A stretch of 64,000 nt of DNA from an uncultured Roseburia sp. GTDB lineage: Bacteria; Bacillota; Clostridia; Lachnospirales; Lachnospiraceae. The stretch is taken from contig CAMFYL010000001.1 in assembly GCA_946002055.1 (NCBI GenBank), positions 1-64,000 of the forward strand. The letters are read 5' to 3'. A model generated the notes under the pieces. It saw nothing but the letters and a program-made list of their open reading frames with translations, was not told where the DNA came from and searched no databases. Below are positions 21,292 to 28,154 of the stretch, piece after piece (positions within the stretch are counted from its first letter, which is position 1; each line of letters begins with the position of its first letter). A program made the position numbers and the translations under genes.

Positions 21292-21359
21292 CCTAGCATT
21301 TTAAAAATAAGCGTGCTATACTAGGGTGGATAAGGAAATACAAATTGAGGAGGAGAGCG

Positions 21360-22862
21360 ATGTTACAGGAAAGTATTAAGAAATTAGTTCAGTATGGAAT
21401 TGACACCGGATTGACACCGGAGTGTGAGAGAATCTACACCACAAATCTTTTGTTAGAGGTGATGAAAGAGGATGAATATTTAGATCCGGATTGCGATTTG
21501 TCTCAGATTGTTTTAGAGGATGTACTGGCAGATTTATTAGATGAAGCTGTTGCAAGAGGAATTATTGAGGACAGCATCGTATATCGCGATTTGTTTGACA
21601 CAAAGCTTATGAATTGCTTGATGCCAAGACCGGCACAGGTACAGGAGAAGTTTGCGAAGACTTATGAGCAGTCTCCTCAGGCTGCTACCGATTATTTCTA
21701 CAACCTGAGCCAGAACAGTGATTATATTAGAAGGTATCGCGTGTGCAAGGATAAGAAGTGGACAGTGGATACCAAGTATGGCACCTTAGATATCACAATC
21801 AATTTGTCGAAGCCGGAGAAGGATCCCAAGGCGATTGCAGCAGCGAAGAATGCAAAGCAGTCATCTTATCCTAAGTGCTTGCTCTGTGTAGAGAACGAGG
21901 GATATGCCGGTAGAACAAATCACCCGGCAAGAGAGAATCATCGTATTATTCCACTTACTATGAACGGGACAAAGTGGGGATTCCAGTACTCGCCATATGT
22001 ATACTACAACGAGCATTGTATCGTATTTAATGGCGAACATACACCGATGAAGATTGAGAAGGCAACTTTTGTCAAGTTGTTTGATTTTGTAAAGACGTTC
22101 CCACATTACTTTTTGGGTTCCAATGCAGATCTCCCAATCGTAGGTGGATCTATTCTGAGTCACGACCATTTCCAGGGAGGTCATTATACATTTGCCATGG
22201 AAAAGGCTCCGGTGATTGAGGAGTTTACCGTAGCTGGTTTTGAAGATGTAAAGGCCGGAATTGTAAAATGGCCACTTTCTGTCATCAGACTTTCATGTGT
22301 GGATGAGAAGAGAATTATCGAGCTGGCGGATCATATCTTACAGGTGTGGAGGGGCTATACAGACGAAGACGCATTCATTTTTGCCGAGACGGATGGAGAG
22401 CCACACAACACCATCACGCCAATCGCCAGAAAGCGGGGAGATATGTTTGAATTGGATCTGGCTCTTCGAAATAACATCACGACAGAGGAACATCCACTTG
22501 GCGTTTATCATCCGCACGACAAGTTGCATCATATCAAGAAAGAGAATATTGGCTTGATTGAAGTTATGGGACTTGCTGTATTGCCATCAAGACTGAAAGG
22601 CGAGATGGAAAGCTTAGCGGATGCTATTGTTGGTGGTGCTGATATTCGAAGTGATGAGACTCTTGAAAAGCATGCAGACTGGGTAGATGAATTTATGGCT
22701 GAGTACAAGGCTGCCGGAGTTGCTGTTGATGCATCCAATGTTGAGGAGATATTGCAGCAGGAAGTTGGCAAGGTGTTCTGTCAGGTTCTGGAAGATGCCG
22801 GCGTATTTAAGTGCGACGAGAAAGGTCTGGAAGAGTTCCGCAGATTTATTGCAGCACTCTAA
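21360..22862 (+). CDS. galT: UDP-glucose--hexose-1-phosphate uridylyltransferase
   Basis: NEGYAGRTNHPARENHRIIPLTMNG, SHDHFQGGHYTFAME, Firmicutes-type long GalT; ATG 21360 after GAGGAGAG. Confidence 0.93.
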   Translation: MLQESIKKLVQYGIDTGLTPECERIYTTNLLLEVMKEDEYLDPDCDLSQIVLEDVLADLLDEAVARGIIEDSIVYRDLFDTKLMNCLMPRPAQVQEKFAKTYEQSPQAATDYFYNLSQNSDYIRRYRVCKDKKWTVDTKYGTLDITINLSKPEKDPKAIAAAKNAKQSSYPKCLLCVENEGYAGRTNHPARENHRIIPLTMNGTKWGFQYSPYVYYNEHCIVFNGEHTPMKIEKATFVKLFDFVKTFPHYFLGSNADLPIVGGSILSHDHFQGGHYTFAMEKAPVIEEFTVAGFEDVKAGIVKWPLSVIRLSCVDEKRIIELADHILQVWRGYTDEDAFIFAETDGEPHNTITPIARKRGDMFELDLALRNNITTEEHPLGVYHPHDKLHHIKKENIGLIEVMGLAVLPSRLKGEMESLADAIVGGADIRSDETLEKHADWVDEFMAEYKAAGVAVDASNVEEILQQEVGKVFCQVLEDAGVFKCDEKGLEEFRRFIAAL

Positions 22863-22918
22863 AGAAGACAAGTTCGGGAATTGTAGATTCGTTGGTAATA
22901 AAATATAGAAAAAGAAAA

Positions 22919-22949
22919 GGTTCAGACCGTTATGCGTCTGAACCTTTTT
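22919..22949. terminator. Intrinsic terminator, likely bidirectional
   Basis: GGTTCAGAC-CGTTATGC-GTCTGAACC-TTTTT, preceded by AAAAGAAAA. Confidence 0.85.
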
Positions 22950-23067
22950 AATAGCATCCCAAAGCAAATTTGAAATAACCAACTGCTTTTTCTCTCTTTG
23001 CCACCTGTGCGAAGATGTATCTTTCATATTCTGCTAATGATAATCCATAATGTTCTGATTTCATCAT
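22948..23067 (-). CDS. Small ORF, 39 aa, paralogous to the adjacent 42-aa ORF
   Basis: Manual translation: MMKSEHYGLSLAEYERYIFAQVAKREKAVGYFKFALGCY*; AGGAGGAATGA RBS upstream; below the ORF-track size cut-off. Confidence 0.7.
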   Translation of the reverse strand: MMKSEHYGLSLAEYERYIFAQVAKREKAVGYFKFALGCY

Positions 23068-23111
23068 GTTTCATTCCTCCTTTGTTATTTTGGTTGTATG
23101 CTTGGAGTAAA

Positions 23112-23240
23112 TTAGAATTTACCGAAAGCATACTTGATGAGGGAAACGGCTTCTTTGCCCTGCTCCTTCTGTGCTGCTACATAGCGCTCATAATCTGCTA
23201 CTACACTGTAAATGGAATAAGATAAATTTTCATCGAACAT
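23112..23240 (-). CDS. Small ORF, 42 aa, paralogous to the adjacent 39-aa ORF
   Basis: Manual translation: MFDENLSYSIYSVVADYERYVAAQKEQGKEAVSLIKYAFGKF*; GAGGAGGTAC RBS upstream. Confidence 0.75.
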   Translation of the reverse strand: MFDENLSYSIYSVVADYERYVAAQKEQGKEAVSLIKYAFGKF

Positions 23241-23662
23241 TTTTTGTACCTCCTCTTGTTCTTTACGGGTACATCATATCACCGGATGTCGTGATTGTCA
23301 ACAAAGAAATGATATAAAATTTGTGTAAAATATACAAGAAATGAGAGCTTTTGCAACAGAACAACTAAAAGGAAGGAAAAACGGTGTGGCAAATGTGCAC
23401 AATAAAACAATCATTTATATGTGCATAATAACAATTAAACATAGAATCAGGAGAGGAAACTGAGATGCATGGAGAGAGTTTTTTGGCAGATTTTTATAAA
23501 AGTGAAGTGGAAAATAAATTTTTGCACAAGAACAATGTGAATTTTTTGTTATATATGCTGTGTTGCTGATGTGGAAACTGGATGTTACAATAGAGGAAAC
23601 GACAAAACGCATTCTAGTTTTCTGGTTTTTATTTTTGGAAAAGATGGGAGAAGATATACGAT

Positions 23663-24217
23663 ATGGAGAAAAGAATTGTTGAGGGTGCATTAAGCGTTGT
23701 AGAGAGGCAGGGAATCAAATTCACAATGGATGATTTGGCATCCGAATTGGGAATGAGCAAGAAGACAATTTACACTGTTTTTAGAGATAAGAGTTCTCTA
23801 ATGATTGCAATGGTGGATTATGTTTTTGATATTATTAAGGAAAGTGAAGCTGCAGTATTGCAGGAGAAGAATTTGACACTTCCGCAAAAGTTTCGCAAGA
23901 TACTTGGGGTGATGCCTGAGAGTTACAGCAATTTCGATTTTACGCAGTTCTATGCGCTAGAAGGCAAATATCCAGAGGTTTATGAAAGAGTACGCCAGCG
24001 TTTGGAGAGCGGATGGGAGATGACTCTTAGTTTGATTGAACAGGGAGTTGCAGAAGGCGTTTTTCGAGATGTTGATTATCGCGTATTCCAGTTGGCCTTT
24101 GAAGCAGCTGTTGAGAGGTTTTTGATGGGAGATGAACTGGAACAGACAGGAATTCCTTATATGAAAGCGTTAGATCAACTGGTCAACATTATGGTTGATG
24201 GAATTGTACAAAAGTAA
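23663..24217 (+). CDS. TetR/AcrR family transcriptional regulator
   Basis: RIVEGALSVVERQGIKFTMDDLASELGMSKKTIYTVFRDKSSL. Confidence 0.92.
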   Translation: MEKRIVEGALSVVERQGIKFTMDDLASELGMSKKTIYTVFRDKSSLMIAMVDYVFDIIKESEAAVLQEKNLTLPQKFRKILGVMPESYSNFDFTQFYALEGKYPEVYERVRQRLESGWEMTLSLIEQGVAEGVFRDVDYRVFQLAFEAAVERFLMGDELEQTGIPYMKALDQLVNIMVDGIVQK

Positions 24218-26684: not shown

Positions 26685-28154
26685 ATGGTTGACAAGTCCA
26701 AAGTGATTTTTGGTAACGAGATGAGCGACAAGGTATACAAGAAGGCTGTAAAGTCTAAGAAAAAGTATGCTAAGAAGTTCGGAGATGATTCTAATGTGGA
26801 TTATCCTGTATACATTCAGAAGAATGAACATATTGGAGATTCTCTTGGAGTATATGACATTCTCTTAAAAGAGGGTGAAGGTTCTGAGGAATTCGATCAT
26901 GAGAAGGGTATTATCGTGGGAAATATCCGAATGGGGTTTGGTCACTATCGTATTTCTATGGCTATGGCATCTGCGGCAAAGGCTATGGGATACACACCAT
27001 ATTGGATGGATTTGAACGGATATCCACAGACCACATGTACCAAGGTTATCAGCGCACAGAACGATTTGTATTCGCTGGGGTCGCGTTTATCAAAGAATGC
27101 ACTTTTCAATAAGCTTGTTTGGGAGCCAATGAACTACGAAGGTTTCCGTGCTTTGTCTTACAATGCATCTGATCAGAAGAATGCAGAGCTTATGGCTCCT
27201 GTATATCGCAACGTTCCGAAGGATATTCCTGTGATTGGAACACATGTATGGCCGGCACAGGCAGCAATCCATGCGGGAATGAAGAACGTGGTCAATGCAA
27301 TTCCGGATAACTGGCCAATGGCCCTTCATTTCTCAGAGGGAAGTGTTCACACCATCCAGTGTAAAAATGCTTACATGGGATACCGTATCTGTAACGGTAT
27401 GAACAAGGATAAGGTTTGTAAGGAAATGCCAAACGACGCATTGATTTACACAGGCCACTACATCGATCACGAGCTTGTTTCTAATATCGAGGCAGACTGT
27501 GATGCAAGAATGGCTAGAAAAGCCAATGGTAAGCCAATGAGATTCTTGCTTACTATCGGTGGCGCAGGTGCACAGAGAGAAATCTTTGCTGCAATCATCA
27601 AGTATCTGCTTCCAATGATTAAGGAAAATAAAGCAGCTTTGTATGTCAACATTGGTGACTATAAGGTAGTTTGGGATTATCTCTTAAATGAAATTCCGGA
27701 GATGAAGTCTGTATCTACAGAACATTTTGATGAGTTTGATAAGACTACTAAGTTTGCTGAAGAGGCAATCACAGGTGATGTAACCGGCATTCATGGGTTC
27801 TATCATGGCAATATCTTTGAAGCAGTTTACTGTACAAATCTTTTGATGAGAAGCTGCGATGTGCTTGTTACAAAGCCTAGTGAATTAGCATTCTATCCGG
27901 TGCCAAAGCTTTTCATCAAGCGTGTAGGAAAGCATGAGATGTGGGGAGCAATTCATGCTGCAGAAATGGGAGACGGAACCTTAGAGTGCCGTGATATTCC
28001 ACACACACTGCAGATGATTGATTTGTTTATGAAGGACGATCAGTTGCTTGGAGAGATGTGTGACAGTATTAAGTTGAACAAGTCCATCGGTTTATACGAT
28101 GGTGCTTATAAAGTGGTAGAAATTGCCATGGGATTAAAAGATAAAAACAAATAA
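26685..28154 (+). CDS. Uncharacterised GT-B-fold-like protein (MurG/MGDG-synthase-like motifs)
   Basis: GNIRMGFGHYRISMAMASAAKAMGYTPYWMD (GxGHxxxA-like), LTIGGAGAQREIFAAIIKYLLP, SCDVLVTKPSELAFYPVPKLFIKRVGKHE (donor-site-like). Confidence 0.6.
   Translation: MVDKSKVIFGNEMSDKVYKKAVKSKKKYAKKFGDDSNVDYPVYIQKNEHIGDSLGVYDILLKEGEGSEEFDHEKGIIVGNIRMGFGHYRISMAMASAAKAMGYTPYWMDLNGYPQTTCTKVISAQNDLYSLGSRLSKNALFNKLVWEPMNYEGFRALSYNASDQKNAELMAPVYRNVPKDIPVIGTHVWPAQAAIHAGMKNVVNAIPDNWPMALHFSEGSVHTIQCKNAYMGYRICNGMNKDKVCKEMPNDALIYTGHYIDHELVSNIEADCDARMARKANGKPMRFLLTIGGAGAQREIFAAIIKYLLPMIKENKAALYVNIGDYKVVWDYLLNEIPEMKSVSTEHFDEFDKTTKFAEEAITGDVTGIHGFYHGNIFEAVYCTNLLMRSCDVLVTKPSELAFYPVPKLFIKRVGKHEMWGAIHAAEMGDGTLECRDIPHTLQMIDLFMKDDQLLGEMCDSIKLNKSIGLYDGAYKVVEIAMGLKDKNK

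What the first reader, a model, noticed from the sequence alone, without database searches (positions are those of the whole stretch)
22948..23240. Tandem pair of homologous ~40-aa proteins missed by the ORF track
On the minus strand two ORFs follow each other: MFDENLSYSIYSVVADYERYVAAQKEQGKEAVSLIKYAFGKF (23112-23240) and MMKSEHYGLSLAEYERYIFAQVAKREKAVGYFKFALGCY (22948-23067). They share A[ED]YERY[IV]xAQ...[KR]E.AV...K[FY]A[FL]G at the same register, each has a good Shine-Dalgarno sequence, and the pair ends at a terminator. Paralogy plus RBSs argues against chance ORFs. I recognise no family; this may be a duplicated microprotein family with regulatory, quorum or membrane-associated function. 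It lies divergently next to the TetR gene of the sugar cluster.
Basis: partly seen in the sequence, partly recalled or inferred. Interest (0 to 1): 0.72.

Follow-up and report, generated by a model that had tools for sequence, protein, structure and literature searches.

The report
Unannotated tandem microprotein gene pair
Two adjacent genes for related proteins of about 40 amino acids are real, conserved and protected by natural selection in a small group of gut-type Clostridia; they form a so far unnamed microprotein family, probably made in quantity in the cytosol, whose target is not known.

Summary
Both ORFs are exactly where stated, each with a strong Shine-Dalgarno sequence, behind one near-consensus promoter (TTGACA-17-TATGAT) and before one intrinsic terminator. 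Tandem homologues lie at the same place (between galT and a TetR/GH2 cluster) in all 5 genomes of the genus. Single or tandem homologues occur in four more genera of the family, plus one diverged copy on an unplaced bacterial contig at a different locus. dN/dS for orthologues is about 0.05-0.24, or synonymous change is saturated, so these are translated proteins under purifying selection. An HMM built without the second-copy group still finds it, so the two ORFs are paralogues. No Pfam, NCBIfam, PHROG, PADLOC, Rfam or PDB match supports a known family. Two further features were found: an upstream ACAA(A/T)TT element at near-constant distance from TTTGTTGAC, kept in all aligned promoters, and a stem-loop spanning the stop codon, strong in five genes of the window's genus. 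The proteins are soluble, near-neutral and predicted as helix-turn-short helix, without membrane segment or leader, which argues against membrane, quorum or toxin roles. Best reading: an abundant cytosolic adaptor/modulator microprotein, possibly tied to galactose metabolism; its target is unproven.

The parts
23112..23240 (-). microprotein gene, copy 1 (42 aa, MFDENLSYSIYSVVADYERYVAAQKEQGKEAVSLIKYAFGKF)
   Evidence: orthologues in 5/5 genus genomes; dN/dS 0.17
22948..23067 (-). microprotein gene, copy 2 (39 aa, MMKSEHYGLSLAEYERYIFAQVAKREKAVGYFKFALGCY)
   Evidence: held-out HMM E=1.2e-5; dN/dS 0.09 with G003
23273..23301 (-). sigma-A type promoter TTGACA-17-TATGAT
   Evidence: 11/12 consensus; aligned in all 11 family promoters
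23318..23324 (-). conserved upstream element ACAAATT, at near-constant distance from TTTGTTGAC
   Evidence: ACAA, TT and TTTGTTGAC invariant in 11 of 11 family promoters
23249..23254 (-). Shine-Dalgarno AGGAGG of copy 1
   Evidence: sequence
23076..23083 (-). Shine-Dalgarno AAAGGAGG of copy 2
   Evidence: sequence
23096..23133 (-). RNA stem-loop spanning the stop codon of copy 1 (last six codons pair with the 3' flank)
   Evidence: -14.9 kcal/mol against mean -2.5 for shuffled flanks, z -6.7; native arms more stable than swapped arms on average
22915..22948 (-). intrinsic terminator of the pair
23663..24217 (+). divergent TetR-family regulator gene (context)
   Evidence: Pfam PF00440; adjacent in g1, g155, g169
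21345..22862 (+). convergent galT (UDP-glucose--hexose-1-phosphate uridylyltransferase; context)
   Evidence: TIGR01239 and NF003629 above cut-off

Best explanation
Shown by sequence evidence: the two ORFs are genuine protein-coding genes of one small family, under purifying selection, arranged as a self-contained unit (conserved upstream element, near-consensus promoter, SD-ORF, SD-ORF, terminator). Inferred: the unit is strongly transcribed and yields an abundant, soluble, cytosolic protein that is mostly one amphipathic helix (about residues 4-26) followed by a turn and a short C-terminal helix carrying the conserved (A/P)VSxxKYAxG motif. It works stoichiometrically, by docking its conserved Tyr-bearing helix on a larger cytosolic protein and altering that protein's activity or stability. 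In genera with two copies the paralogues have specialised. The most likely targets are the products of its habitual neighbours, GalT or the TetR/GH2 cluster, by analogy with sugar-linked regulatory microproteins such as SgrT; this step is a guess from gene order. The stop-codon stem-loop probably protects or insulates the short messages.
For: Orthologues: 5/5 genomes of the genus with tandem pairs, pairs in g155, single copies in g169, g268 and g291. dN/dS low. Promoter, upstream element and SD conserved, also at the unrelated MT836534 locus. Soluble, near-neutral, amphipathic. AF2 helix 4-26 plus 34-38, pLDDT 78. Codon bias (C-ending NNY 39% in the pair, 45% family-wide) is nearer htpG (39%) than TetR (19%), hinting weakly at high expression. 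Adjacent to galT and/or TetR in every genome of the family where its surroundings were examined.
Against: No partner, expression or phenotype data. Gene neighbours vary: g169 lacks galT beside it, the g268 member has no TetR beside it, the MT836534 copy has neither. TetR homologues in other genera lack the microprotein, so it is not a required part of the TetR system. The AF2 model rests on two sequences.
Confidence: 0.42

Rival explanations
1. Dual-function transcript: a small regulatory RNA with stem-loops that also encodes the peptides.
For: Strong stop-spanning stem-loops in G000a, G003a, G001b, G004b, G002b (z -3.5 to -7.0); native arms more stable than swapped (mean -14.1 against -8.9); self-contained strong unit.
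Against: Amino-acid selection is clear; the stem-loop is absent or not significant in most other members and in the window's copy 2; no Rfam family.
Confidence: 0.18
2. Galactose-locus modulator in the strict sense: the microproteins bind and tune GalT or antagonise the adjacent TetR regulator.
For: Next to galT and/or TetR in the genomes of the family where its surroundings were examined.
Against: Neither neighbour is constant; the MT836534 copy is between an amidase and a FliB-like gene; other TetR homologues have no microprotein.
Confidence: 0.2
3. Secreted peptide: leaderless bacteriocin-like, surfactant (PSM-beta-like) or signalling peptide.
For: Tandem peptides of about 40 aa without leader, with strong SDs, recall leaderless two-peptide bacteriocins and staphylococcal PSM-beta pairs in layout (own knowledge).
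Against: Near-neutral, hydrophilic (GRAVY -0.06 to -0.89), no supporting family match in Pfam or NCBIfam even at E 1-10, no immunity or export gene among the immediate neighbours.
Confidence: 0.08
4. Toxin of a toxin-antitoxin unit.
For: Small, strong promoter.
Against: No transmembrane segment typical of type I toxins, no antitoxin gene recognised, no PADLOC match.
Confidence: 0.03
5. Chance ORFs, or leader peptides for attenuation of a downstream gene.
For: Very short; stem-loops near stops.
Against: Purifying selection on the proteins; a terminator follows and the next gene, where it is galT, is convergent.
Confidence: 0.02

Closest known systems
SgrT (43-aa regulator of PtsG/EIICB-Glc; PMC3901232, PMC4021124)
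   Same: Microprotein of about 40 aa, acting by binding a larger protein of sugar metabolism; RNA structure on the same transcript.
   Different: No sequence comparison was made here; SgrT is carried by the sRNA SgrS and acts on a membrane transporter; here two paralogous ORFs, no sRNA demonstrated, target unknown.
PSM-beta / leaderless two-peptide bacteriocins
   Same: Tandem pair of homologous peptides of about 40 aa, amphipathic helix, no leader.
   Different: No profile match, hydrophilic, no export or immunity genes beside it.
Uncharacterised small-protein families of microbiome catalogues (e.g. GMSC, PMC11364881)
   Same: Conserved multi-genus smORF family without Pfam domain, as most are.
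   Different: Here promoter, synteny, selection and paralogy were worked out; whether this family sits in such a catalogue was not checked.

Membership tests
Bacterial microprotein family (generic) | translated ORF under 50 aa with synonymous-biased change among orthologues | tested here: met
   dN/dS 0.05-0.24 or saturated dS; lengths 38-43 aa
Bacterial microprotein family (generic) | protein detected in cells | not testable with these tools
   needs Ribo-seq or MS
Staphylococcal PSM-beta / leaderless bacteriocins | profile match to a Pfam/NCBIfam model of that class | tested here: not met
   0 families for the window proteins at E<=10 in Pfam and NCBIfam; only unrelated weak hits for other members
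Staphylococcal PSM-beta / leaderless bacteriocins | hydrophobic amphipathic secreted peptide | tested here: not met
   GRAVY -0.06 to -0.89; secretion itself not testable
Type I toxin | transmembrane hydrophobic segment | tested here: not met
   best 15-residue KD mean 0.95
SgrT-like sugar-stress regulator | encoded on a sugar-stress sRNA; binds a sugar transporter | not tested
   no expression or binding data; Rfam scan finds no family
Known defence systems | PADLOC profile match | tested here: not met
   no match up to E 1

The most novel reading that the evidence does not exclude
A new family of paired cytosolic microproteins that assemble with each other and tune galactose (Leloir) metabolism or its TetR-controlled cluster, made from a promoter with its own dedicated upstream operator and short messages closed by a stop-codon stem-loop.
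Probability: 0.12. Interest if true: 0.6.

Novelty: new member of a known kind. Interest (0 to 1): 0.4.

Why it matters
The pair has no match in the family libraries searched, yet it is under strong purifying selection and carries a near-consensus promoter. It gives a compact, testable microprotein family with built-in comparisons: one-copy and two-copy genera, and members at different loci. If it tunes GalT or the TetR cluster it would add a microprotein layer to sugar use in gut-type Clostridia.

Tried and rejected
Weak HMM hits in many other genera: 19 candidates, chosen mainly for short frames, were read one by one and none has a convincing start codon with SD and a fitting ORF, so they are taken as noise; hits inside long frames were not followed. 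Microprotein beside other TetR homologues: none found with an SD in 17 loci, whose scanned upstream stretch varied in length. Promoter as a general strong-promoter class: in the own genome TTTGTTGACA-17-TAnnnT occurs 4 times, one before hrcA. The longer pattern in 338 genomes hits 4 known members and 8 unrelated places, against 5 control hits. Phage origin: the MT836534.1 'phage' record carries bacterial-type genes such as nrdD/nrdG-like and GGDEF-EAL. Foldseek against PDB: best E 3.8, uninformative. Rfam: nothing above gathering scores.

Full report
What is there. On the minus strand the window holds two short ORFs at the stated places, 23112-23240 (42 aa) and 22948-23067 (39 aa), with Shine-Dalgarno sequences AGGAGG and AAAGGAGG, each 8 nt from its ATG. 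Upstream is a TTGACA-17-TATGAT promoter (11 of 12 consensus bases, TG before the second hexamer) and downstream a 13-bp terminator. The pair is thus a transcription unit of its own, convergent with galT (TIGR01239 above cut-off) and divergent from a TetR gene that is followed by a GH2 enzyme and a DUF6937/DUF6938 protein.

Is it real? Homologous tandem pairs occur at the same place in all five held genomes of the genus. A profile search of 397 genomes in 334 genera of the family finds convincing members in only five genera; further searches add genomes of the same genera. They are g1 (the window's genus, pairs), g155 (pairs in two genomes), g169 (one copy, seven genomes), g268 (one copy) and g291 (one copy). 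Short-frame weak hits elsewhere were read individually and dismissed.

Nei-Gojobori dN/dS is 0.17 for copy 1 (G000/G003), 0.09 and 0.05 for copy 2 (G000/G003, G003/G002), 0.13 for g155 copy 2, and 0.12-0.24 where defined in g169, with synonymous change saturated in some pairs and no amino-acid change in the closest pair. Changes sit mainly at codon position 3. These are genes.

Are the two copies related? A profile built without the second-copy subgroup (G000b, G003b, G002b) and without the MT836534 copy still finds them at E 1.2e-5, 5.7e-8, 1.1e-7 and 1.3e-10; the best of 20,000 shuffled sequences is 0.042. Paralogy stands. The protein tree cannot resolve whether all pairs stem from one duplication.

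A member elsewhere. A tblastn search of phage records found a diverged copy (MYTIDPAMSFGEVILYYEKYLTETKAEGKKPVSFLHFITGRY) on MT836534.1, a record labelled bacteriophage whose other genes look bacterial: GGDEF-EAL, a methyltransferase-like protein, amidase, FliB-like, nrdG- and nrdD-like (gene names from my reading of the sequences). It has the same kind of promoter, an SD and a following stem-loop, but no galT or TetR in the stretch searched. The unit therefore occurs with its own promoter outside the sugar neighbourhood, which is usual but not obligatory. Conversely, many TetR homologues in other genera have no microprotein beside them.

Promoter element. In an alignment of 11 family promoters the columns ACAA, the TT after the following A/T, and TTTGTTGAC are invariant at a near-constant distance. 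ACAA...TTGT could be a dyad of some 20 bp overlapping the -35 box, that is, a regulator site, or an UP-type element; this is inference. The promoter core alone is not unique, since hrcA in the same genome has a similar one. The longer pattern hits four known family members and eight unrelated places in 338 genomes, against five control hits.

Stop-codon stem-loop. In the window's copy 1 the last six codons pair with the 3' flank around the stop (-14.9 kcal/mol; shuffled flanks average -2.5; z -6.7). G003a, G001b, G004b and G002b show the same (z -7.0, -5.9, -6.1, -3.5). G004a and two near-identical g169 members are weaker; the window's copy 2 and most other members are not significant. Native arms are on average more stable than arms swapped between eight genes of the genus (-14.1 against -8.9), though the native arm is best in only 4 of 8 rows because close relatives can exchange arms. 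It is a feature of the window's genus, probably for message stability or insulation (inference), and not a defining trait of the family.

Protein. Net charge is -5 to +4, mean hydropathy negative in every member, with no membrane segment. AF2 on the two window proteins gives helices 4-26 and 34-38, mean pLDDT 78, pTM 0.51; PDB fold comparison is uninformative. There is no useful match in Pfam, NCBIfam, PHROGs, PADLOC or PDB sequences. One weak Pfam hit, a baculovirus LEF5 C-terminal domain at best E 0.00098 in 3 of 10 members, is taken as chance because the window's own proteins have no hit at all. C-ending codons in the NNY boxes counted are as frequent as in htpG and commoner than in the neighbouring TetR gene; with 23 codons this is only a hint of high expression.

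Verdict. The membrane and quorum ideas are not. The most economical reading is an abundant cytosolic microprotein that acts by binding a larger protein, with GalT or the TetR cluster as first candidates only because of gene order. SgrT (PMC3901232, PMC4021124, found) is the nearest functional analogy, from the literature, not a homologue tested here. Most small-protein families in the GMSC catalogue lack a Pfam domain (PMC11364881), so the finding is a solid new family of a common kind, not a new kind of system.

Noticed in passing
window 23500-23662: Upstream of TetR lies TGTTACAATAGAGGAAAC, seen again in G002 and G001; G158 and g169 have related GTTTCC / GGAAAC motifs near their TetR gene: a candidate TetR operator separate from the microprotein promoter.
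   Followed up: partly
window 26685-28154: DUF6937/DUF6938 protein, strongly conserved (about 82-85% identity in g155 and g169) in the TetR cluster, although the GH2 gene is missing there in g155.
   Followed up: no
L171 (MT836534.1): Record deposited as 'Bacteriophage sp.' looks like a bacterial chromosome fragment.
   Followed up: partly
window 23350-23370: Second recurring stretch GTTGTTCTG..GCAAAA / GTTCTGCTC.AAAA further upstream of the promoter, seen in several genomes of the window's genus.
   Followed up: no
L152 (G000:C46): hrcA heat-shock gene of the same genome uses a similar TTTGTTGACA promoter, with a CIRCE-like repeat after it.
   Followed up: no
L069, L070, L148: Members with C-terminal tails that differ from the usual end (FGQYED, FGQFD, FGFEK), so the exact C-terminus is not fixed, which argues against a C-terminal signal peptide.
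   Followed up: no
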